Assembly (NCBI RefSeq): GCF_040954835.1
Contig: NC_090698.1
Location: 25,039,501 to 25,103,500 of the forward strand
Reading direction: 5' to 3'
DNA: 64,000 nt
Source of the DNA: Lepisosteus oculatus
Lineage: Eukaryota > Chordata > Actinopteri > Semionotiformes > Lepisosteidae
The notes beneath the pieces were generated by a model that saw only the letters and a list, made by a program, of their open reading frames with translations, was not told the origin of the DNA and ran no database searches. This document shows, piece by piece, positions 35,956-63,572 of the stretch. Position 1 is the stretch's first letter, and each line of letters starts with the position of its first letter. A program made the translations under genes and the position numbers.

Positions 35956-37725
35956 CTAAGCAGGAAGATGCTTCCAGGTGCTCACAAAAGCTGTTGGAAT
36001 GAGTGAATACGGCACAGTGGTAATGCTGTTCCACGTATCCAGTGTCGGGTCATAACAATCCAGAGTTTTGCATCTCTGCGTGCCAAAATAACCACCAACA
36101 ACATAGAGTTTATTACCAGAAGCCACGGCTTGACAGCTCATGCGTTTTGCAGTCACATCACCTACTTTAGTCCACTGGTAGGTCTCACTGTTGAACTTGT
36201 ACGCAGAGCATGCTGAGAATTCAGTGTCCCCTCCCATGACAAAAATCTGGTTGCCCAGCACAGCTGCAGCTGTATAGCGCCAGGGCTGTGGGCAGGTGGC
36301 TGGTACAGTCCATCTGTTCTCCAGTGGGTCATAGCACTGCACTTTGGGTAGCTTGTCATGGCTCACACTTGTCCCCCCAAAGGCAAATAGCTTCAGCTTG
36401 ACGCTCACTACAGCCGCATTGCTCACCCCTTCTCTAAGAGGTGCCACCATCGTCCACTTGTTGATCGCTGGGTCATACTGCTCAACCTGCTTCAGCGACA
36501 CAGACGGGGATGCTGGGAGGCACCCTGTGGCAGCTGTGTGTCCGCCTACCACATACAGACAGTGTTTAAGCTCAGCAGAGCCATGGCCAAACCTGGCAAT
36601 AAGCATGGGGGCAGCCTTGGACCACTCTTCATGCAAGGTGTCATAGACCCAGACGTCTTTGGATACCCCATTTTCTGATCCACGGCCTCCTGTGACATAA
36701 ACCTTGCAGCCAATGGCACAGGCACTGAATTCCTTACGAGGGCTGGGGATGTCAGCCTTCGGAATTATTTCTTTGGCTTTCTGATCCACCAGGTAGAGCT
36801 TATCACACATGAAGGTCTGGCCTCCTAACAGAAAGAGGGCATGGCCAGTCTTCCGTGGCCGAGCACAAAGACTTGTGACCACACCATCATTCTGCAAGAT
36901 CTTTAGCTTACAGCGAATAGCCTCATCCACCAGTTCTTTGCTTTTAGGCTGCTTGTTAATAAGCTCTTCTGTGGAGACATTCTCCATCAGAAAGATAGCA
37001 GGCAGAAGGGCAAGACGGACTGTGCGCAACAGCTCCGGGAGAAAGTAGTACCTCTTCTCCAGGTCGTAGTTCACCCAGTTTAGGGCAGACTCATAAACCA
37101 GTCTTTCATCCTCCGTCTCCAGCTCCTCGTGGGAGAGAAGCTTGACCAGCATGTCTTTTGGCAGCTGCAGAAAATCCTCCGTCTTGCAGATGGTGGGGAA
37201 GTTGCTAAGACACATTCCCCAAGAGAGCTCAAACAGCTTGGTGCACTGGTGGGCGTCTGACAGCAGCAGCATTCCCAGGCAGTTCGTAGGGTGCAGGTTC
37301 TTCTCCAGGAACTCGGCACACGCATCACGGATGTCCTGGAACTCCAGCATGTCCCCGGCCTCCAGCAGCGACTCTGCGTTCTCCTCGTTGATGATGACCC
37401 TCGAGGAGTAGGCATAGTCGAGCAGCAGCTCCAGCACTTCAGGGTGGATGGAGTCATGGAAGTTAACTTCACTGGCCTGGCTCTCCCTCAGCCCCCCACT
37501 GAACATAGCCTCAAAGTAGCGGCTGCAGGCAGCCAGGACAGCACGGTGACAAGGGAAAGAGCGGCTGCCAGCATGGAGAAGGACATCAGTGAAGAGCCTC
37601 TGCTGCCGGAGAGCATTCAGGTGCATGAGGACGCTATCAGCATAAGAGGACTTGTGGAACAGGTAGATATTCATGGAGCCTGTGCTGGCTCGGGACTTGC
37701 GATTCTCATGGACATAAACTGACAT
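35956..37725 (-). CDS. enc1: enc1: ectodermal-neural cortex protein 1 (KLHL37), BTB-BACK-Kelch adaptor
   Basis: Actin-associated BTB-Kelch protein of the nervous system; as a KLHL-family member it can act as a cullin-3 substrate adaptor (family knowledge). The reading frame is intronless and 589 aa long, the same length as human ENC1 and nearly identical to it as I recall it. BTB domain about residues 46-114, BACK about 149-250, then six Kelch blades with Gly-Gly pairs near 301, 346, 394, 450, 498 and 544. An extra in-frame ATG two codons upstream (37729-37731) has a poor context (T at -3). The ATG at 37723-37725 has A at -3 and matches the human start, so it is preferred. A splice acceptor (ttttag) ends at 37738, so the coding exon begins at 37737. 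Confidence 0.98.
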   Translation of the reverse strand: MSVYVHENRKSRASTGSMNIYLFHKSSYADSVLMHLNALRQQRLFTDVLLHAGSRSFPCHRAVLAACSRYFEAMFSGGLRESQASEVNFHDSIHPEVLELLLDYAYSSRVIINEENAESLLEAGDMLEFQDIRDACAEFLEKNLHPTNCLGMLLLSDAHQCTKLFELSWGMCLSNFPTICKTEDFLQLPKDMLVKLLSHEELETEDERLVYESALNWVNYDLEKRYYFLPELLRTVRLALLPAIFLMENVSTEELINKQPKSKELVDEAIRCKLKILQNDGVVTSLCARPRKTGHALFLLGGQTFMCDKLYLVDQKAKEIIPKADIPSPRKEFSACAIGCKVYVTGGRGSENGVSKDVWVYDTLHEEWSKAAPMLIARFGHGSAELKHCLYVVGGHTAATGCLPASPSVSLKQVEQYDPAINKWTMVAPLREGVSNAAVVSVKLKLFAFGGTSVSHDKLPKVQCYDPLENRWTVPATCPQPWRYTAAAVLGNQIFVMGGDTEFSACSAYKFNSETYQWTKVGDVTAKRMSCQAVASGNKLYVVGGYFGTQRCKTLDCYDPTLDTWNSITTVPYSLIPTAFVSTWKHLPA

Positions 37726-39574
37726 TTTCATTGAATCCTAAAAGGTAACCAAAAGACAGAAATGAAATTAGACCCACAACAATTTAAATACAATTCTCAT
37801 ACTTTCACAGCATTTTCAGGAAAGTTCCTCCAAATAGACGCTGGACACTTTGTAAAAAAAATGGAAAGGCAGACGTGAAATATCTTTAAGCAGAGACTGC
37901 AGCAAAAGGGGTGATTACAGCAAGAAAAAAAAAATCTGTTAAAGTATCTCTCTGTATGATGTAATCCCGCACAACCACCAGTAACCAGCTCTGATCTTTT
38001 CAAGTGCATGCGCCACATTGTAATCATTACCAGGTGCTCAAAAGCCGACGCCGATCCAAAAGACTTTTCACAAGAAGCCAACATTTGAATTTAGGATAAT
38101 TGTGTGTTTCCTTATTCATACTATTCTTTCTAACGTCACCCATTTCCAGCTCGCTGTCAGCTTTGTCTGACAGGTTCAAGGAAGTTGTTCTAAGAATTTT
38201 AAGCTCCATAGCGGCGGAGGACAGACCTCATCATTTACAAGACAATAGTACATTTTTATTCTAGTAATAATTCCAGCGCCATCCTTTGGGATAATTAACA
38301 ATATACATGTTTTTTCAAAGTAATCTGCAAGTGAAGCAAGTTACGTACGTCATAATTTGCATAAAATTATAATATTGCTTTTTGGTTAGCAGTGTCGCAT
38401 ATATAAATGCGAAAGTGATCGATACTTTCTTTGGTTTAAGATTCTCATCACAGCTGCGACTTTTGTCCCTTGCTGTGAATTTTAATTTTCCCGTCTGTTC
38501 TTGTTGTTCATATATAGGCTATTACGTACGATTAATTTATAATATCGCTGTTGTATCAGGTACAGCATAGAGAATTTATTGATGGGGTTATAAGAAAATG
38601 TATCCTCTAGAGCAAATAAGAGTTTTAATATGCGGCAACGAATTGGTTATACACTTGTGCAATTATTTATATTACTATTTACATTATACAATTTTATCAA
38701 TTAGTTGCCCGTTTTGCTCAGTCAACATAGCTCGATTCTAGAAAAGCTGGCCTCAGTGAGTGCTCCTGAAACCGAACAAATCCGTTTCAGTACTGACAAT
38801 TTTAAAGGTAATTTCAAACAAACTAAAACTAAAGGTTATTCAAAAATATTTTAGGTAAGTGGTTAACAACACTCATTTATTTCCTACCATGTGTTTCTGT
38901 TGTTTTTACTTGGGTACTATAATATTCCTACACTGGAAGTAAGATACTATTCTACCAGAAATGTTTCTGCCACAATTTCACTTTACGTGGCGTTTTCGTT
39001 TTTAACGCCAGAGACCATTATTACAAATGAACAATAACACACACCAAAGATGTTGTACTGGCATTAACAATATATATATTTCTAACTCCTGCACGCTCAA
39101 AAACGTGTTAGCCTTTTAATTTGCTGTTAAACAGGAAAGCCAATTACGCGAGAAAAGAAATTCAGAGCCATAACATGTTTTGTACTGAAAGATTTGTAAC
39201 GCTGACATCAACACAAAATTGTGCCGTAGGAAATCTGCAAGTGATTTATGTTAATTCTGTCCTTTTTTATTAATTTCAGACAATACAACCAATACGTTGT
39301 TTAAAGTAACTACGCGAACATATTTTACAGCTCTAATGTAAAGACCATTCCAAACTATGTAGATTGGACTGTGAACAACATACTGATTATTGTGTAATTT
39401 AAACAAATATTTGATGTGGCGCTGTATAACAACTTTGTTATAATTTAGGAGAAAACTCAATCGGCTCTGCAATTGCTCAGTTACCAAACGTGTTGCTACC
39501 GGAAAGCAAACTTCCAAGCTTTCAGTCATTATACGCATTCAATTAAAAAGCTAGTCGACATTTTTAAATCTTAC

Positions 39575-52704: not shown

Positions 52705-55700
52705 ATGGCTGCGCTTGTGAAGTTCGTCTTCCTTCTGTTTGGAGCCACCGCTTGTCTGGGCTGGCAGAACAATTTGGCCGATGTCCCGAAGCTGACGGTC
52801 TCTGCATATGGCTCGCTCTGGCCCTTGCCGCAGTCTGTGCACATCTCTCCTGTAGCTTTCAGGGTCAGCAGCTTCGGTTTCCAGATAGTCCATTCCCCGA
52901 AATCGTCCGCTGGTCCAAGTTGCTTCCTCTTGCAAAATGCTTTTCGGAGGTAAGATTAAAGCCATCGATGTCTTTTTAAAGTCGCCCTCCTTATCTGTTG
53001 CAGCTTTATATAGTACATCTTTACATGGCTCTCACTGCAGGTTGGAGAACTTTTCTCAAAGTAGGTATTGACAAGGAATGTCTACTATGTGAAAAATAAA
53101 ATACAAACGCCACATGTAAATATCCTATAACCTCCTGGCAACTGGCAAATTACATCAGATTGTTGCGGACATTAATGTATAGGAACTAGTATGATGCAAT
53201 TAAATTAGGAAATAACGACTTTCCTATGTAGTACGGTAACTTATAATTTGCCATTTTATATTGTAAATACAATCGTGGGAAGAACCTGTTTTTCTTAGTT
53301 TGGTGATTTAGTTGATTTAATTTATCCACAGCCGTAAAAGCTTCTGCTGTTGTAGTTTTTATGTAACAGCGCATATTAATTTGGTGTGTGACGTAATATA
53401 AAGTTTCGGGTTACCTCGTCTGAGTATTTCATTTTTAATTTAACATGCAGCTGTGACTACGAGCTGTACACAGTAACAGAAAAGTGAGTGCAAGTTCGTG
53501 TGATGATTAAAAAAAATTGTCAGGTTGGAGGTTCTCAAACTACTTGTGAAACAGAAACCTGAATGTTGGTTTGATCCAAGTTTATGATCAAAGTCCTGTT
53601 TTCCCCTGTTGTATAAATCCAGCAAACTATATTTTCTATTGCTACAGTAAATTCACAATTCCATATTGAGTAAAAGACATCCGAATCTTTATATGTGTGT
53701 TGATAGAAGCAGAATTTTGAAACATCAATACATTTAAAACAAGCAGTTTTAGCTGGTCTTATAAAAGAGAGCAAGTGATCCAACTATGTGTAATCCTGCA
53801 GGTATTTTGAATACACCTTTGGATACTCCAAGAAGCTGAAGGGAGATCTGAAGATGGTTGCAAATGATTCTGAGGTATTCGAGTTGCAAGTCTGGATTTC
53901 TTCAGAAAATCCAGAGTGTGACAGTTACCCCAGTGTGAAGTCTGATGAGTCATGTAAGTGTCAAGTTCCATGTTTAGCCACTTCAGTTAACCCATGCTAA
54001 TATTTTTATTGCATAGATAATTCCATAGGACAGGTTGTAAACTGCCAAACATGGTACTGAAGTAAATATCATATTGTCCTTTTGATATTTGAATTACCCA
54101 TAAAATGGTAACTATTAATGTATATTCCAGTTTATTGTTTTAGCTGTGATTTTAATGCTTAACAAGTCAGGTATTTTCTTATTCGTTAGAGGAGTCTTTT
54201 TTGTTTTTAAGGCTGGAAAAAAACCAAATTTGTAAAATTTGGTTGATAAGGATTCTAAGTCTTAATTTCTGGGTGTGACCAATTGGACAAATCTTAATTT
54301 TTACTGTAATGTGAAAGAAATTATGGAATACAATTAATTTGGCAGTACAAGAGGTGTTTCTTTCACTGTCCTGTACATTAGTATGCTTCTGGTACCCCTA
54401 TTATATCCCTGACTGAGCAATTAAATACTTCAAATCCAATAAATAAAGTTCATTAGATGGTTTGACTGAATCTTTGTTACCTCACTTTCTGGAATTCTGT
54501 TGATACAGTAGTTTGTTGGTATAAATCCTGTTATGATTTTTAAATTAAATCTACAGTGGTGCTTTAGAAGAATTTTCTTTGGCTATTTATGTCCCAGAAA
54601 GATGTATTTTAGCTCTGCCAGAGAATTTAAAAGATAGCACTAGAGTACTTGAATGTACTGTAATATTAAGCTTACTTGTAAAGCTTCTGGGTATGATCTT
54701 CACCATCTTAATCATTTAATTACCCTTATGGTCATGTAAGGGTGATTGCATGAGGAGTGTTAAGATATTAATTAGAGGAAAAGTTGACAATTGAGTAACT
54801 GAAACTTGTCCTGTAACATTCCAGGCATTTGCTAAGGGCTTGGATAGAGTTGTGAAACATACATACTGTAACAGTGGTATCCTATAATTTCAATGATAGA
54901 AACACTATGTAGTGCATAAATATTGGACTGGGTTTCTAGAATGTTGCAGGTCTTAGGTAGCATAGATTGAGACAACCCTCTAAAGAAGGTGATGTGTTTA
55001 AGTAACTAAATTTTTTTTCTTCAGATGAGCTCAGCATTGATCAGCCTACAGCTGTCTTGAAAGCTCCAAAAGTCTGGGGAGCCCTGCGAGGTAAAGACAG
55101 ATGCTTAATTACAGTATCTTGCATGTAAAAAGTTTTTTAATGTTTTCCCATACTTGTGAAAGGAATAATTTTTCTCATAGGCAGGAACACCTGATAAGGT
55201 GATTGAAAGGCCACTTTGGCATTGCCATATAATCAGAAAAACTTTGAAATGGAACCAATAAGAAAATATTGTCAAAATGCTTGAGTGTGTGGTCAGTCTT
55301 GTTTATTTGCAAGGTAATTGAAAGCTCATGGTTTGTCTAGTCTTTTCATAATGTAAATATTTATTTGACATTAATGTTCCCCCTTGGATATTCATTTGAA
55401 ATGCAATTCTTAACAGTTCAGAATTGGTTACTTTCCTTAAATGTCTGGAAAAATACCTTGCAGAAAGAGCCTGTATTATTCTCAACACAAGTTCTCTCTG
55501 ACAAGACCAGTAATTTAAAAGGAGATCCACATGCATTTTCCCTTGGCCTCAGGGAGGCCAAGAGAAGATATACAGGTAACATAGTATATCCAATCAGAAG
55601 AGTGTACAGACATTATCACTTCCATGTTATCTTTTTGGTGGTTAGCTTGTAATTCTGATAACTTCTTTCCAGGACTTGAGACATTCAGCCAGTTAGTGTA

Positions 55701-58700
55701 TGCAGATAAATATGGAACGGTAAGTTTCTCAAGTCAATTCTCAACTTTTTTTTTTCCCAGCTAGCTCAATTGAACCTGCCACGTCATGCTATCAGGAATG
55801 CTTTTTTGTGTTTATAAGACAGGGCTTTTAAATGAAATAATTAGCTTTGAAACACATTTTTAAGTACACATAGTGATAAGGAGGAGCAATTTACTGATTA
55901 TCTCAATCTACTGGTGTTTTGACAGAACTACATCAACAAGACTGATATTCAGGACTTCCCAAGATTTGCTCATCGGGGCATTTTGTTGGATTCTTCCCGA
56001 CACTACTTGCCTCTTAAAGTGATCTTGGCAAATTTGGTGAGTAAAGCACTGGTTCATGAATAATAAGTCAGGTCAAGGTAGATCTTTCTATACCTAACTA
56101 AGCTGAAACCAGAGGACTCTGGTGTCTGAAGAGTACACGGTTTACAAAAGAACACTGAAATTCCTAAACTGGAATAAGAGTCAGGGGACACTGGGGGAAC
56201 AGGAAACAAGTTTGAGAAACTAGTTTACAAAAGTACTCTGCTTGTATTTAGTTTTGCCCTGGGGTTTTCATTTAAACATGAAAATGTAATTCAGAATTTC
56301 TGAAGTCTTCTGGGTTTTTTATTATTTAATATATTGAGGGGGCATAAACATAAAAAGCACATCTACACAGAGTAACCTGCTTAACTGTGTTTATGTACTC
56401 TTCATAGGATATTGCTGTCATAGAACAAACAGCACCATATTAAAATCCTTTAGCATTGTTTGATATTTGTCTTATTTACAATACTCAGGCAACAAACAAT
56501 TGTTTTTTAGCCCGAAACAGACCTGAAAATTGTAACTATTTGTAAACCAATGTTTTAGTGATTTGTGTCTAAAGAACATTATTCACCTTTAAGAGTTTGA
56601 GCTTCGAAAGTTTGTTGGAAATAATAATTGAAAAAATCTTAATTTCTCATAATCTGTTAGCTGTATCCATCTACCTAACTACAGTACACAAACATTCTTC
56701 CATCTGCAAAAACGGAGTAGACATACAGTGTCATAAGTATTGGGACAATGAAGTCAAAATGGCTATTTTTGCCGTATACTCGAGCAATTTGGATTTGAGA
56801 TGAAAACCTTAATATAAAAGTACAAAAAGAAAAAAGACCAGGCAATTGCCCCAATACTTATGCTCACCTGAAGTAGGGAGACTGAATAGGGAGTTTTTTT
56901 TCTCATATCAATCTTATCTAAAATCTGAATTGCTTGAGTATATAGAAGTTGTTAGTATACAGTGTTGATTTCCCTATCACAATATTCACTTAGGGCACTG
57001 CATTTTCTTACTCTAATGTATCCTCTGGCTTTTTCATAGCAAGTGGGTGGAAATCTGTTTTTCACACCTGTTTGCAATATCAGACTGCATGAAAATTGAG
57101 TACCCTTTTAGTACCACCCTCTCAGAAAAAGGTAGTGATCTGGAAAAAGTATTTCCAGTGCAATACATTTCATGAGATTTACTCCCCCACGTGTTTGTAA
57201 GGGTGACTATTAGGCTCTTTCTCTACCTGCAGGATGCCATGGCCATGAACAAGTACAATGTCTTCCACTGGCACATTGTGGACGACCACTCTTTCCCTTA
57301 CCAGAGCACGGCTTTCCCTAATCTCAGCACAGAGGTTCGTCAAGAATTGTTCAGCATGTTTCACTTATCTGTTATGGATTTGTTTTAAACTTGGAGTAGT
57401 ATCTTACAGTTTCACAAACCTGTCAGTTTCCATATGGGAATGTGAATGTATTGTAGGTTATCTTACATTCTTAATGAATAAGATTTATAAGAACATACTG
57501 TATAGTTTCTTCTCAACTTGCCACTGGGATCTGGGAACTTCAGATGAAAGTGTAGTTTTCCTTGTCATTGTAATAGGGATCCTATCACCCGTATACCCAT
57601 GTCTACACTCCCACTGATGTGAAGATGGTGATTGAATATGCGAGAATGAGGGGAATCCGTGTTGTTGCTGAGTTTGACACTCCAGGACACACGCAGTCTT
57701 GGGGCTTAGGTGAGGCCTAGATTTCCTCTCATGAAATGGAGCCTTTTTCTGGCACATATGAAACTTCTGTTTAGGGCAGAAAAAAATTATGGCTAATACG
57801 CAAGAGAACAAAAATCAAAACAAAAATCACACTGGTTAGTTCATTTAATATTTTGACAGTGGGTATAGAAAACTACTGACAGTTGGCAGTACTGATTGGT
57901 AGAATGTTCAGATGTTAGTTTGTGATTTCAAAAAGGCACTTCCATGTCTAACCAGCGGCTGTCCCCAAGAAAATCCATACCTCACAACGTTGTTTTACTC
58001 ATACAGAAGAACCTTGTCATTCATTGAGATTCTGTTCTTAAACTACAGGGCAGATCTATGATACACAAAGTATTCCAACTCAAGCAAATCCAAATAATTC
58101 AAACTCCATCCTGTCTTTTCTGCTCGTCGACATTTGAAGTTGCGACTCACTCTTGTTTTATAAATGTTTTGCTCACACAGGCCAGAAAGGGCTCCTTACT
58201 CCCTGTTATGCAGGAGACACACCTACAGGAACATTCGGGCCTGTGAACCCTATTCTGAACTCCACCTATGAGTTCATGACCCAGTTTTTCAAAGAGGTCA
58301 GCTCTGTCTTCCCTGACATGTACATTCACCTAGGTGGTGATGAAGTGGATTTCTCTTGCTGGTGAGATTTCTAAGTATAATGATCTCTTACCTTTTCAGG
58401 TTCTCAGTTTTAGAACCTCAGCAAGATGTTTTGGCATTGTTGAAATCACAGAAACATGGTTAACTGAATGTTGTGGTGATAGAGCTCAGCAAAAAAACCA
58501 GAACAGAGGATGAGGAGAAAGGAATAGCACTGCACATCAAAAAGAACACTCAGCCACAGAAATGCAACTTAAATAAATTAAGGGTCTCAATGTTAATGCA
58601 TAAATCTTCTATAAAAAAACACCTTATTCCAATATCAATAATAATGCAGTCTGACATTCAAATCAGGGATGTACCTACATGTGTAAGGTAAAATTTTCAT

Positions 58701-61700
58701 GTGACATGGTGGGATAAGCTGTATATTGACAGGTACATAATTCAAATCAAACTGTTAAAATTGTACAGTACAATAGCAAACATTCTACATTGTATGCTTC
58801 TGGTTAGAATAATACAAAAAGGCCCTGCAGGCAGTCTGAAGAAAACTAACCAGTTATGCTTCTTGTCACAAAGGAATGTCTCACTTTGACAAGTTCTAGC
58901 AGTGTATGAAAAATAAAACCCTTTTTCTTTTAAAAGTTAATTTTATTGACATAAGAACTGGAAAATCTGAAACCGGCTGATGTTTGATCTACATTCATTT
59001 CATCCGATCTAAGATAACCGAAACCTTAAAACTTTTTTAGTGTTGTGGAAAAGTAACAAACAACTACCAAGTGGTCTGGATGGACTGAATAATTTTCTCT
59101 TGTTCTTACGTACTGTAGATTTATTTAGATCATTAAGCTGTATTAAAGGGAAATGCTGAAATACTCATTTCAATGTCACATTGACAAACACCCAGCTTTT
59201 TTTCCCCACAGGAAATCAAATCCTGACATTCAAAAATTCATGGATACACAAGGTTTTGGCAAGGACTACAGTAAGCTGGAGTCTTACTACATTCAGAAGT
59301 AAGTGATAAAATCAATTATTTTGACATGTCCATGATGCACTTGAAACTGTATGGGACACTGAGAAAGAGGTATTTGTAATTTACTGCCATATTTATGATC
59401 AAGGACTGTGGTGGAAAGTGTAGCTTTTATATTCTGTGACAATATTAGAGCAGCAACAGACTGTGACTCTAACTGAGGAATGGTGACAATCACTTATGCA
59501 TCTTCGACATAGCCTAGTGTAGCAATGTGACGCACACTAGCGGTGTTTGGAATCAAAATGTAAATATTCTTGAACTAAAGCAAATAAGCTTTATTTTCCT
59601 GCATTTTTTTTAATTATAGTTGCATTCATTGCTTGTTCTATTGAGATATATACTTCTAACTGTAGGATCCTGGAAATTGTTGCTGGCACCAAGAAAGGTT
59701 ACATGGTTTGGCAGGAGGTATTTGACAATGGAGTGAAGGTAAGTTGGAAAAGTAGCTGGACTGTTGTTGCTATGCATGTTTCTCACTATAAAGTAGATTT
59801 TTAAGTTGTTAAATCTTAAATATCGTGTTCTTGGTTGGAGATGTCTGAATAAACTAACCTCTGTCAAAGTCATTGTGCATGTTAGAAAAGATGGCTATGA
59901 TGCTGATCGCTGTCAATATTAAAAGAGTGCTTAAACTGATAGGTTAGAATTGTAAGCTAAAAATAGTATTCCAATTTAGACTTGCTAGTATTGTTAAAAT
60001 ACAAATCCTGCAACTTGGTACTGGACAGCTTTACTGGCTTCTGTCAAGTGCAGCAGCTAATTTCCTTTGGGGAAAAAATGGATAGATGACCCAAAAAAGC
60101 TTACTGTCTTGCCATTGTCCTTATATTGGTATGACTATTGTGATGCAAAAAAATAAAATAAACATGCCTTACCTTTTGATCATTCCAGATAAAGCCAGAT
60201 ACTGTAGTGGAAGTGTGGATGGGGAATAAGCTTGAAGAAGAACTCAAAAAAGTAACAGGAGCTGGGTTCACAACAATTCTGTCTGCCCCCTGGTACCTAG
60301 ATTACATTAGCTATGGCCAGGACTGGCAGAGGTACTACAAAGTTGAGCCTCTTGATTTTGAGGGTTAGTTGTTTTATCTTTTATTTTTCATGCCAATTTG
60401 TTAAACACACTTTCCCTTGAGTGAGTTTCCAGAGATAATTTGTCTTTACGAGGAAAGATCGTGTAAATCAAATAAAAACCACCACATGATGGGATTTGTT
60501 TTGTCACATGAAACTTTCCAGGCAATTTATTTTTTTTATGCTTTCTAATATGCAAGTTGATCTGGAAATAATCTGTTTTGCAGATGTATGGCAGCATATT
60601 TGTCTCATTATAGAAAATGTGCTGTTCAAGGAAATTCCCTACATAGGGAGATTGCAAACGGGCACCTAGCTCTCAAACTTCTCAAAGTGCCCAGTTTAAA
60701 ATTGAAGCCAACATTTTACTGTTAATGCATTCTTGGCAGAATTTGAGAGAATCTATTGTTTAACAAACCTGTAAAATGTAAGCATATCTGTGAAAGAAAT
60801 CACATTTGACATTGACAACCAATGCAGTAAGAAGGGAAGAGATTAATCAACTGTATGTGTTAACCAATAAAATACCTTAAAATATGTATTTATAACTATA
60901 TGATAGTCTGTATGAGTTTTATTGTAGTGAGCTGTATACTATGAAAATGTAGTGGATTATGCCCTTTTTTATTTTTCTATACTAAGCAAGTGTGTTAAAA
61001 TGAAGGAAAATAGGGGTAATAAATATGCTAAGACAGTATAGGTGCTCACTCTGAGTGTGGGTTTAGCTTTATGGCCAATGTGTTGCAGGTCTGAAACTGA
61101 CTCATGTCATTAACATAAGGTTGGGGTTAGGCTTGGCCGTCTGGTCTTTTCTTTGTAGGTTTGCAGTAACCTCAGTAAGGAGTGTGCTGCTGCTCCAGTC
61201 AGCACTAACTCGCCTATATGGCCCTGTGGAGCTTGCAACTTGTAAAAAATTACGGATTTTTTTTTAGGTGGCCAGTATAGAGGAGCTTATCTGTCCATCC
61301 AATCTTACCATGCAGTACTAGGAAAATGGACAATTGTAAACTGAGAGGGTATCAATGTGAACAATAAGCTAGAAAAAATGTCATCCAAGTGGCTAAACCA
61401 GTTGAAGCACTTGCCAGGCTGCAGTTTAATTTGTGTGTTTGACACCGAGTCACATCACTAGCTTTGCCAAGAGGCAAAGCAGAATAGTGTACCTGGACTC
61501 ACTCAGCTGAGGCCTCCTAGTAAATTACTGGCATGTGACACTGTTGGTGAGAGTTGTACCTCTCCTTAAATCACTGCAGGACCATAGTATGGGGCTTTGG
61601 GCGCTGTGTCATGTTAAAAGATGAGTGCCTCGTTATTTAACGTTTTGAGCTCTGTACAGTATCCGAGAGCTAAGACCTGAAAAACATTTAGTAATTCTAA

Positions 61701-63572
61701 ATTAACAGAAAAACTGAGAAAATGTGGAAAAACAGCAAGACTATAAAACAAGTATAATAATACAAAGAACACTGCATTTGTTTTGAGGCAGACTCTTTTA
61801 ATGGTGACATTAACATTTAAACTGTTGCTGCTTGCATGTTCAGCTTGACAGCACGTCGGAGTGAGCTCAAAGACTTTTCTTTTATGATAATCGCTTTTCC
61901 TCTGCAGCACATTTAGGGAATGAGCTCTCATACGGTTTTCCAAAGCAGAGCACGGCTGATTGATGCACGATTTAAACATGCACATTTGAAACTCTTGCAC
62001 GATGCCTTTATCATGGTGTATGAAATTGTTCTGCATCCACACTCATATTGTCTGGGGATTGTGATAATTCTGTCTGTCCGCTCTGTCTCTAGTTAAAGCT
62101 AGACACCCTTATCCAAGTGTGGAAGGGAAATGAGGAGCAGTATCAGAGGGAGATGGCAGCAATAACAGCTGCTGGGTTTCATGCCCTGCTCTCCTCGCCC
62201 TGGTATCTCAACCGAATCTCGTACGGCCAGGACTGGCAGCAGATGTACAGAGCCGATCCGTACAGCTTTAACGGTGTGTGCAAGACCTCCACCCCAGTGC
62301 CCAGTACCAGGGAACCAGCTTCCCAACAGCCTTTTCAATTCAGTTATATACAGTAATTCATTGCTTGCCCTTTTTTATTCTTTAATCCTAATTGTAGGAA
62401 GAAAGATGACACTGTAATTGTTATAACTAATTTCTGTAAAAAATGTGCATACTACTGTATGATCTTGTATTTTGCTTTCCATTTTTCTTAGGGACTGAGG
62501 CACAGAAGAAGCTGGTAGTTGGAGGAGAGGCCTGTCTTTGGGGAGAATATGTGGACGCAACAAACCTCACCCCAAGACTCTGGTAAGAAAGCAAGAATCC
62601 CTCTTTCTTGCATCTTAATACTCAAGTTACATGTTACAATAAACATTTCATTACACAGTACTGTTCACTTGGCCATGATCTAATTCCAGTCATTGGCTAC
62701 ACTATAGAAGGCGCTAATTGATGAGTTAATGATTTATTTGCAATGTAAAAGAGTGAAACCCTTCTATCTTCTTGGTTGTATTGACAGCAACCCTCAAATG
62801 TATTTTTCCTTCATCAGTTTTTCAGTTTACTTTCACTCAATTCTCATACTATTTCACTGACTTTATTATGAACACATTTAAATGCTGAAAAGGAATCACC
62901 TGACAAAAAATCATGGCATTTGATTTATATTAACACAACAGGAGAGACAAATGCATTGGCTCCTTTTGGGTGTTAAATCTGCATTTCTAAGCATTGCCAA
63001 CATAAAACTAGTGGTGTCTCCTTCCTTCCCCCAGGCCTCGGGCCAGTGCAGTAGCCGAGCGTCTGTGGAGCGATAAAGATGTCAAGGACATCGGTGATGC
63101 ATACAGCCGCCTCACCCAGCACCGCTGTCGCATGGTGCAGTAAGTATTGGCCACACTGATGGAAAAACTCTAGTGAACTGGCAAGATAGTCCAGTGTATT
63201 TTGAATTTCCTTTGAGCACAATGGTTGCTATGGAGATTTTTTTTTGTACAGCATCAAAAGCCTTCCATGTCAGGTGCAACCCTGTTCAAATCAGTGCAGC
63301 TTGGCTCCAATTAGTTACCGTTTCCTCAATTGGAATTTTTATTTCTTTCTAAATTTTAAGAAATTATAACAGAGTTGAAACCAAGGCTTTCAGTGGAAAT
63401 GACCGGACTAGACAATTCAGAGATTGGTCGGAAAAGCCTTCATACTTGGATGAGTTATTAGTACTTCAGTACTCTTCACTCACTGCATCTTGGGTTTTTT
63501 TTTTACAGGAGAGGAATCCCTGCAGAGCCTTTATATGTGGGACACTGTGAACATGAGTACAAGGGCTTGTGA
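52705..63572 (+). CDS. hexb: hexb: beta-hexosaminidase subunit beta, lysosomal (14 exon positions, exon 11 in two versions)
   Basis: Glycoside hydrolase family 20 enzyme that removes terminal GlcNAc/GalNAc from glycolipids and glycans in the lysosome. Exons read from splice sites and frame: 52705-52949, 53802-53953, 55025-55090, 55673-55719, 55926-56036, 57233-57334, 57577-57709, 58181-58361, 59212-59298, 59666-59738, 11a 60189-60363 or 11b 62093-62273, 62492-62582, 63035-63139, 63509-63572. The product is 543 aa with 11a or 545 aa with 11b; human HEXB is 556 aa. ATG 52705 is the first in-frame ATG, after in-frame stops at 52648, 52660 and 52669. Residues 1-19 form a signal peptide. The catalytic Asp339-Glu340 pair lies in H-L-G-G-D-E. 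N-glycosylation sequons are at N174 and N312. Several exon lengths equal the human ones as I recall them. Orthology rests on the enc1 neighbour and on beta-type exons 3, 12 and 13, although exons 7-10 contain many HEXA-like residues. Confidence 0.96.
56727..56868. mobile_element. MITE-like DNA transposon in hexb intron 5
   Basis: CATAAGTATTGGG at 56732-56744 is repeated perfectly inverted at 56850-56862. The match extends imperfectly on both sides. The element is about 140 bp with no coding capacity. It looks like a non-autonomous DNA transposon; the superfamily was not determined. Confidence 0.6.
58421..58570 (+). mobile_element. degenerate LINE endonuclease fragment in hexb intron 8
   Basis: One frame reads [12 protein letters not shown], the typical I-T-E-T-W-L motif of the apurinic-like endonuclease of CR1/L2/Rex-type LINEs. 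After a frameshift, E-K-G-I-A-L-H-I-K follows where the family has G-G-V-A-L-Y-V. No long open frame remains. Confidence 0.45.
60189..60363 (+). CDS. hexb: hexb exon 11a (beta-type active-site exon)
   Basis: This exon has 175 nt: 58 full codons plus one base. It starts at a codon boundary after acceptor ttccag and ends at donor gttagt. It encodes residues 400-457, including E-V-W and [12 protein letters not shown], and ends K-V-E-P-L-D-F-E-G. This matches human HEXB exon 11 (W-Y-L-D-L-I-S-Y-G). Asp437-Tyr438 occupy the place of human beta Asp452-Leu453. Confidence 0.95.
62093..62273 (+). CDS. hexb: hexb exon 11b (alternative, HEXA-like active-site exon)
   Basis: This exon has 181 nt: 60 full codons plus one base. 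It lies 1.73 kb after exon 11a and 218 nt before exon 12. The acceptor has a strong CU-rich tract (ctgtctgtccgctctgtctctag) and the donor is gtgtgt. No stop occurs in frame. It encodes residues 400-459, with [22 protein letters not shown] and a Y-S-F-N-G end. Entry and exit phases equal those of 11a, so the two can be swapped. Asn439-Arg440 match human HEXA Asn423-Arg424. The protein is far diverged from 11a yet keeps the family-invariant residues, so this is an old exon under constraint rather than a fresh copy or pseudoexon. Expression is not shown by the sequence. Confidence 0.88.

What the first reader, a model, noticed from the sequence alone, without database searches (positions are those of the whole stretch)
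60189..62273. hexb has two interchangeable copies of exon 11, predicted to be mutually exclusive
Seen: two exon-like segments, 175 nt and 181 nt, each with AG/GT sites, each opening at a codon boundary and leaving one base, with intact frames encoding the same GH20 segment (VW ... PWYL..ISYGQDW). Exon 10 ends in phase 0 and exon 12 needs one base in front. Using both (356 nt) or neither shifts the frame; using exactly one keeps it. Known human HEXA and HEXB have a single exon 11. I know of no description of such a pair in HEXB, but cannot search.
Basis: partly seen in the sequence, partly recalled or inferred. Interest (0 to 1): 0.95.

Follow-up and report, generated by a model that had tools for sequence, protein, structure and literature searches.

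The report
Ancient swappable exon in fish hexb
A gene for a lysosomal sugar-cutting enzyme in the spotted gar carries two interchangeable copies of one exon, one resembling the human Sandhoff-disease enzyme (HEXB) and one carrying the active-site pair of the human Tay-Sachs enzyme (HEXA), and the exon pair appears to be older than the split between those two human genes.

Summary
The window is spotted gar hexb: the 11a isoform equals the NCBI gar entry 'isoform X2', 543/543 residues. Exons 11a (175 nt) and 11b (181 nt) are intact and exchangeable; both or neither gives a premature stop. 11b-type segments occur in proteins of elephant shark, bichir, sturgeon, teleosts and frogs; Labeo rohita has two annotated isoforms differing only there. 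11b carries Asn-Arg, the alpha-subunit (HEXA) pair that binds sulfate or sialic acid; 11a carries Asp-Tyr, beta-like in its acid. Engineers made Asp-Leu to Asn-Arg in human HEXB for gene therapy (PMC13198282). Gar hexa also has both exons: same order, lengths and phases. Trees and a four-point test group exons by type, not gene, more weakly without the key residues. So the pair probably predates the HEXA/HEXB split; human HEXA then kept b, HEXB kept a. AU tests do not exclude an independent origin in hexa. Not shown: RNA junctions, enzyme activity. None of ten full-text searches listed a paper I recognised as describing the pair.

The parts
52705..63572 (+). hexb coding region, 14 exons plus the alternative exon 11 (exons: 52705-52949, 53802-53953, 55025-55090, 55673-55719, 55926-56036, 57233-57334, 57577-57709, 58181-58361, 59212-59298, 59666-59738, 11a or 11b, 62492-62582, 63035-63139, 63509-63572)
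   Evidence: AG/GT at all inner borders, one open frame; 11a isoform identical over 543 residues to Lepisosteus oculatus isoform X2, P0040
58181..58361 (+). exon 8: codes the [16 protein letters not shown] loop, nearer to human alpha (GSEPSGT) than to human beta (RQNKLDS), in both isoforms
   Evidence: engineered equivalents named in PMC13198282 and PMC3587417 (passages)
59666..59738 (+). exon 10, ends in phase 0, donor AAG|gtaagt
60189..60363 (+). exon 11a, 175 nt, beta-type ([12 protein letters not shown])
   Evidence: (best solved matches are human beta chains, 81.8 bits; alpha 58.4)
62093..62273 (+). exon 11b, 181 nt, alpha-type ([12 protein letters not shown])
   Evidence: (best solved matches: human alpha 62.9 bits, then 5bro, a beta entry whose aligned segment reads [12 protein letters not shown], 61.3; native beta 57.3)
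61951..62090 (+). stretch of about 141 nt upstream of the 11b acceptor without AG (88 nt for 11a, 85 for exon 12; 15-40 nt at the other 11 acceptors of the gene), compatible with a distant branch point; suggestive only, as the gar hexa copies do not share it (15 and 31 nt)
62492..62582 (+). exon 12, needs one base in front; accepts either exon 11

Best explanation
11a and 11b are an ancient pair of mutually exclusive exons in the GH20 catalytic domain of hexb. Splicing one of them gives a subunit with a beta-like active-site edge (Trp-Tyr-Leu-Asp-Tyr, 11a, expected to favour neutral substrates) or an alpha-like edge (Trp-Tyr-Leu-Asn-Arg, 11b, expected to accept 6-sulfated sugars and, with GM2 activator, GM2 ganglioside). 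Transcripts with both or neither exon meet a premature stop and should be removed by nonsense-mediated decay. The exon pair most likely arose before the gene duplication that made HEXA and HEXB. Gar still has both copies in both genes; human HEXA descends from a gene that kept b and human HEXB from one that kept a, so the alpha/beta specificity difference would be a splice choice that was divided between two genes. Shown: exons, frames, conservation, the hexa pair, tree groupings. Inferred: splicing in gar RNA, decay, substrate change, order of duplication and losses.
For: Frames and splice sites. Depth: one search lists 28 proteins, including ones from Callorhinchus, Acipenser, Erpetoichthys (NV instead of NR), teleosts and three frogs. 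Of 232 distinct proteins from the three searches, 39 carry WYLNR: 36 from fish, shark or frog (named hexb or taken as hexb by similarity) and 3 amniote HEXA; 15 hold both copies, a before b in 15 of 15. With the two key residues masked, 158 segments of 143 fish, shark and frog proteins were sorted by similarity to gar 11a or 11b: Asp in 121 of 122 a-type, Asn in 36 of 36 b-type, Asn-Arg in 35 of 36 (one a motif of a fused model counted twice). Copies are old: a-b within a gene 41-63% identical (13 genes), a-a 72.7% and b-b 71.5% between 12 hexb genes (66 pairs each). Labeo X1 and X2: 541 aa each, 514 identical, all differences at 398-454. Chemistry: alpha N423-R424 against beta D452-L453 decides hydrolysis of charged substrates, and R424 pairs with sulfate or sialic acid (PMC3587417, passages). 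Hexa: 11a' 59751053-59751227 (175 nt) and 11b' 59752119-59752299 (181 nt) on G000:C5. Gene tree without exon 11: gar hexa with amniote HEXA 99/93, hexb 99/96 (28 rows). Exon tree: a-type incl. gar hexa 11a' and human HEXB 99/91 (77 rows) or 94/89 (33 rows); b-type incl. gar hexa 11b' and amniote HEXA 82/90. Four-point column bootstrap: P 0.0001 (all rows, identity), 0.022 (four gar exons alone), human HEXB/HEXA 0.003; without the two key columns 0.0006, 0.047 and 0.016.
Against: No RNA reads or enzyme data. AU tests do not reject pairing the two gar hexa exons with each other (p 0.47 and 0.49) or all hexa-gene exons together (p 0.35 and 0.28): exon 11 gives only 60 columns and gar hexa 11a' is a long branch. 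Part of the grouping comes from the key residues: with them masked the a group has 86/68 and the b plus HEXA group 65/46. In the 77-row tree, where I had named the rows a or b by the Asp/Asn state, b-type exons are not one clade; a-type and amniote HEXA lie together with frog b exons. For the shark only the b-type protein was seen; both copies in one gene were seen in gar, 14 teleosts and one frog. One a-type row (P0109) has Asn. Gar hexa 11a' has AGPS where the other a rows have ISYG or nearly so and may be decaying; gar hexa 11b' has Asn-Val. 11b lacks two further alpha features, Glu394 and the DIPV loop. The donor of 11a scores below 11 of the 12 constitutive donors and that of 11b below 9 of 12, which fits regulated exons but also weak use. 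None of the 39 WYLNR proteins came from the transcript-sized lgn contigs, whereas 7 listed 11a proteins did. The monomer structure model has pLDDT under 50 at 436-442, the very segment, so it adds nothing.
Confidence: 0.7

Rival explanations
1. The exon duplications in hexa and hexb are independent, or one locus converted the other; the pair in hexb is old but does not predate the gene duplication.
For: AU tests do not reject it (p 0.28-0.49); support for grouping by type falls to 86/68 and 65/46 when the two key residues are masked; gar hexa 11a' is highly diverged.
Against: Same place between exons 10 and 12, order, lengths (175/181), phases and b-exon donor (gtgtgt) in both genes; four-point test P 0.0001-0.022, and 0.0006-0.047 without the key columns; Asp/Asn state matches exon type in both genes.
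Confidence: 0.2
2. Both isoforms are made, but 11b does not confer alpha-type specificity; it tunes dimer assembly, stability or glycosylation, or is functionally redundant.
For: Only two of the residues that define the alpha site are switched; exon 11 also holds the dimer-interface residue Tyr456 (PMC2492878, passages), though it is the same in both gar hexb copies.
Against: The switched pair is the one named as the primary determinant (PMC3587417, passages) and used in modHEXB (PMC13198282, passages); Asn-Arg kept in 35 of 36 b-type segments.
Confidence: 0.2
3. 11b is a cassette or poison exon: inclusion of both or neither is used to switch the gene off through decay, with no 11b protein.
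For: Frame logic allows it; both donors are weaker than most in the gene.
Against: 11b alone gives an intact 545 aa enzyme and its protein sequence is conserved (71.5% mean between 12 hexb genes, 66 pairs); hexb 11b and hexa 11b' differ most at third codon positions (identities 38, 42, 23 of 60).
Confidence: 0.05
4. 11b is a dead or recent duplicate, or an assembly artefact.
For: None found beyond the absence of reads.
Against: b-type segments in 36 proteins of other fish, shark and frogs and a b-type exon in gar hexa.
Confidence: 0.01

Closest known systems
Mutually exclusive homologous exons (tandem duplicated exon substitution), e.g. human sets in PMC5740500, PMC4465641, PMC9741552 (passages read)
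   Same: Tandem homologous exons of equal phase, one used at a time, frame lost if both are used (as in 377, 60%, of the human clusters of PMC5740500, passages), very old.
   Different: Those surveys deal with human events; hexb and hexa are not named in the main text of the three papers (supplements not read). Here human HEXA and HEXB are described as having a single exon 11, and the pair is seen in fish and a frog; it swaps part of an enzyme active site.
Engineered HEXB with alpha-type site (modHEXB of PMC13198282; 5bro reads the same segment; HexM by name)
   Same: A beta subunit with Asn-Arg instead of Asp-Leu at the active site, plus an alpha-like GM2-activator loop (gar hexb exon 8 GDTPTGT; human alpha GSEPSGT).
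   Different: Natural, made by exon choice, and old; activity not measured.
Splice-form subfunctionalisation after gene duplication (mitf in fish, SKI7/HBS1 in fungi; reference entries, passages and search listings seen)
   Same: Ancestral alternative exons divided between paralogues.
   Different: Here it would explain the alpha/beta division behind Tay-Sachs and Sandhoff disease, and genes with both exons still exist.

Membership tests
Mutually exclusive homologous exon pair | Adjacent homologous exons with the same phases | tested here: met
Mutually exclusive homologous exon pair | Both or neither breaks the frame | tested here: met
Mutually exclusive homologous exon pair | Both copies conserved in other species, same order | tested here: met
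   15 of 15 proteins holding both have a before b (14 teleosts, 1 frog); b-type depth
Mutually exclusive homologous exon pair | Transcripts join exon 10 to either copy and either copy to exon 12 | tested here: inconclusive
   Labeo X1/X2 annotated proteins differ only in exon 11; no reads or mRNA examined
Mutually exclusive homologous exon pair | Steric block: donor of first copy too close to branch point of second | tested here: not met
   1729 nt between the copies in hexb, 891 in hexa; not required: potential in 57 (9%) of human clusters (PMC5740500, passages)
Alpha-type (anionic substrate) hexosaminidase site | Asn-Arg at alpha 423-424 | tested here: met
   11b WYLNR aligned to human alpha
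Alpha-type (anionic substrate) hexosaminidase site | Alpha-like GM2-activator loop (GSEPSGT) | tested here: inconclusive
   Gar hexb AGDTPTGT is similar, not identical
Alpha-type (anionic substrate) hexosaminidase site | Glu394 and DIPV insertion | tested here: not met
   Gar 11b has Gly there and a loop of different sequence, two residues longer than 11a (alignment)
Alpha-type (anionic substrate) hexosaminidase site | Hydrolyses MUGS and GM2 | not testable with these tools
   Needs expressed enzyme
Splice forms divided between paralogues | Both exons in a paralogue pair; exons group by type while genes group by gene | tested here: inconclusive
   Both exons in both gar genes; best trees and four-point tests group by type, weaker with key residues masked, and AU tests do not exclude the alternative
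Splice forms divided between paralogues | Each descendant paralogue keeps a different exon | tested here: met
   Human HEXB nearer a-type, HEXA nearer b-type; relics in human introns not searched

The most novel reading that the evidence does not exclude
The single Hex gene of early vertebrates already made alpha-type and beta-type subunits by choosing between two exon 11 copies. The HEXA/HEXB duplication later fixed one choice in each gene, so the specificity split behind Tay-Sachs and Sandhoff disease is a former splice switch, and living fish and frogs still make a one-gene Hex A from hexb alone. In gar, hexa lacks the Arg in both copies, so hexb-11b would be the only subunit with the alpha-type anion site.
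Probability: 0.55. Interest if true: 0.92.

Novelty: new member of a known kind. Interest (0 to 1): 0.85.

Why it matters
If right, it explains where the alpha/beta substrate difference of lysosomal hexosaminidase came from, shows that nature made the same active-site pair that gene therapists built into HEXB, and makes the idea that gene duplicates divide ancestral splice forms directly testable with one enzyme assay. It would also bear on zebrafish Sandhoff models: hexb loss removes over 99% of Hex A plus B activity there (PMC6772114, passages), as expected if hexb supplies both site types, though other readings fit too. [quoted passage not shown]

Tried and rejected
Young duplicate or dead exon: rejected by conservation. 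Steric enforcement: the copies are 1729 nt apart. U12 splicing: the borders are GT-AG without an obvious U12 donor, judged by eye against a recalled consensus, not scored. Frame plus decay is the simplest enforcement; the regulator is unknown. The N-glycosylation sequon (Asn-Gly-Thr) made by 11b and exon 12 looked isoform-specific but is not: 15 of 28 b rows and 9 of 22 a rows end in Asn, 2 of 24 a rows left out as fused. A repeat pair near exon 10 and at 62356 is short and was not pursued. The zebrafish record named Hexa protein (P0079) matches hexb with 11a and then ends in an unrelated eight-residue tail; it is not evidence for hexa. The heatwave paper PMC8933327 names hexb among genes spliced differently between February and March (passages); I did not see its event type, so it is not counted as evidence. 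The structure model of a sturgeon 11b isoform is weak at the key segment and was not searched further.

A mend made on checking: my first count of Asp against Asn was circular, because I had named the tree rows a or b by that very residue. I repeated sorting, four-point test and tree with the two key residues masked; the sorting held (one exception, P0109), the test and tree held but weakened. I therefore lowered the best explanation from 0.75 to 0.7, the novel case from 0.6 to 0.55 and raised the independent-origin rival from 0.15 to 0.2.

Not in print: ten full-text searches (of these 12, 13, 20, 55, 56 and 66 were aimed at the pair or the gene family's splicing) listed no paper that I recognised as describing it; I saw listings, and passages of the papers cited. 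The library holds only open-licence papers, and one relevant paper on homologous exons after gene duplication (PMC4494069) is not held.

Rows dropped: for the exon tree I used a named subset of the 247 exon-11 segments (77 rows). I left out Lates (fused model), the fused Collichthys b copy and the duplicate of gar 11a, and trimmed the fused tails of Albula and Gymnothorax 11a. The 33-row trees are a further choice of mine that favours slowly changing rows. In one search the borders given for gar hexa exons 10 and 12 were off by a few bases; those two rows are not used.
Full report
What is there. The window is from spotted gar: the hexb protein assembled with exon 11a is identical over 543 residues to the NCBI entry 'beta-hexosaminidase subunit beta isoform X2 [Lepisosteus oculatus]' (P0040). 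All inner exon borders are AG/GT. Between exon 10 (ends 59738) and exon 12 (starts 62492) lie two exons: 11a at 60189-60363 and 11b at 62093-62273. Each starts at a codon boundary and leaves one base. With 11a the protein has 543 residues, with 11b 545. With both, the frame stops 140 nt before the next exon junction, with neither 64 nt before it, so both wrong forms should be decay targets (the 50-55 nt rule is recalled). No third copy was found in the window (next best tblastn match E 0.23).

The copies are not alike in kind. 11a reads [12 protein letters not shown] and its best solved matches are human beta chains (81.8 bits against 58.4 for alpha). 11b reads [12 protein letters not shown]; its best solved matches are human alpha (62.9 bits), then 5bro, a beta-chain entry whose aligned segment reads [12 protein letters not shown] (61.3), then native beta (57.3). 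That 5bro is a published modified homodimer is recalled. In human enzymes the pair Asn423-Arg424 of alpha against Asp452-Leu453 of beta decides whether charged substrates are hydrolysed; Arg424 pairs with sulfate or sialic acid and Asp452 repels them (PMC3587417, passages). Gene therapists put Asn-Arg plus an alpha loop (GSEPSGT for RQNKLDS) into human HEXB to make a beta homodimer that lowers GM2 in mice (PMC13198282, passages). Gar hexb has an alpha-like loop already in exon 8 (AGDTPTGT), so the 11b isoform naturally joins both features. It lacks Glu394 and the DIPV loop of alpha.

Depth. A search with the 11b segment returned 28 proteins: from elephant shark, bichir, sturgeon, many teleosts and three frogs, then three amniote HEXA. 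A search with 11a returned 331, of which 120 were listed. Over the 232 distinct proteins of three searches, 24 carry only WYLNR (21 from fish, shark or frog, 3 HEXA) and 15 carry both types, a before b in all 15 (14 teleosts, 1 frog); those 15 are gene models that put both exons in one protein. Not every one of the 36 fish, shark and frog proteins is named hexb; 13 hexb rows were placed by tree, the rest are taken as hexb by name or similarity. The database is clustered at 90%, so the two isoforms of one species usually fall together and these counts are lower bounds. In Labeo rohita both isoforms survive as separate entries on a contig of the same length: X1 with 11b, X2 with 11a, 514 of 541 residues identical, all differences at 398-454. 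Within a gene the copies are 41-63% identical (13 genes); between 12 hexb genes a-a averages 72.7% and b-b 71.5% (66 pairs each). Sorted with the two key residues masked, 121 of 122 a-type segments have Asp there and 36 of 36 b-type have Asn, 35 of them followed by Arg (143 proteins, 158 segments, one fused a motif counted twice; the exception is P0109, a-type with Asn-Tyr).

The paralogue. A search of the gar genome with quail HEXA gave 22 matches at E up to 1, all in two loci: the window gene and one on contig C5. The C5 gene also has two exon 11 copies: 59751053-59751227 (175 nt, WYLDSAGPSQDW) and 59752119-59752299 (181 nt, WYLNVIHYGQDW), in the same order, lengths and phases, with the same gtgtgt donor on the b copy. 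A gene tree without exon 11 puts this gene with amniote HEXA (99/93) and the window gene, shark and frogs in HEXB (99/96). The exon-11 tree groups by exon type: gar hexa 11a' and human HEXB with hexb 11a (99/91 in 77 rows, 94/89 in 33 rows), gar hexa 11b' and amniote HEXA with hexb 11b (82/90 in 33 rows; in the 77-row tree the b exons are not one clade). A four-point test over columns, expected to be zero if the hexa pair arose on its own, is positive (P 0.0001 with all rows by identity, 0.022 with the four gar exons alone). Without the two key columns these become 0.0006 and 0.047, and the 33-row tree keeps the same groups at 86/68 and 65/46. AU tests do not reject the independent origin (p 0.28 to 0.49): 60 columns are few. 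The matching anatomy in both genes is the stronger argument.

Direction. Among 85 rows of the third search other than the named vertebrates (many without an organism name, taken as invertebrate), 66 read Asn-Tyr, 6 Asn-Leu, 8 Asp-something, 4 other Asn pairs, 1 none; so Asn is probably the older state and the Asp of 11a the derived one. That search used a probe I made up with Asn-Tyr, which biases it towards such sequences. A published GH20 tree is consistent with the alpha/beta duplication in a vertebrate ancestor after the tunicates split off (PMC2492878, passages). The exon duplication would lie before that event.

How it probably works. Splicing picks 11a or 11b. On an approximate recalled scale the donor of 11a (6.2) is weaker than 11 of the 12 constitutive donors and that of 11b (7.1) weaker than 9 of 12; both acceptors have long stretches without AG (88 and 141 nt, against 15-40 nt at 11 others and 85 at exon 12), as recalled for some regulated exons, though the gar hexa copies do not share this. 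What makes the choice is unknown; a steric block is unlikely at 1729 nt. The 11a product should act as classic beta, the 11b product as an alpha-like subunit, giving beta-type, alpha-type and mixed dimers from one gene. In gar, hexa itself has no Arg in either copy, so hexb-11b would be the only Arg-bearing subunit. In zebrafish, loss of hexb removes over 99% of Hex A plus B activity, yet the adults are viable (PMC6772114, passages); the first fits but does not prove this, since alpha also needs beta for stable dimers.

Judgement. A real, old exon pair of a known kind, not described in the papers I could search, with an unusually concrete consequence for enzyme specificity. Exclusive splicing in RNA, the substrate switch and the pre-duplication origin are inferences, in that order of confidence.

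Noticed in passing
window 35959-37737, minus strand: A single open frame of 593 residues with BTB, BACK and Kelch domains, like enc1 (name and its place beside HEXB recalled).
   Followed up: partly
L022/L023 (G000:C5:59751053-59751227): Gar hexa 11a' keeps frame and splice sites but has AGPS where the other a rows have ISYG or nearly so, including loss of the dimer-interface Tyr; it may be an exon on its way out.
   Followed up: partly
P0162 (Palaemon), P0209 (Rhipicephalus): Two arthropod hex entries named isoform X2 read Asp-Tyr at the key site while most rows of that search read Asn-Tyr; a separate, convergent exon pair in arthropods is possible.
   Followed up: no
P0109 (Neosynchiropus): An a-type exon 11 with Asn-Tyr instead of Asp-Tyr at the key site, the only such case among 122 a-type segments.
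   Followed up: no
P0079: Zebrafish record named Hexa protein matches hexb with exon 11a and ends in an unrelated short tail after it; the name is misleading.
   Followed up: partly
window 59624-59667 and 62356-62399: 44-nt stretches 73% alike, one at the exon 10 acceptor and one in the intron between 11b and 12, both ending in TGTAGGA; may be chance.
   Followed up: no
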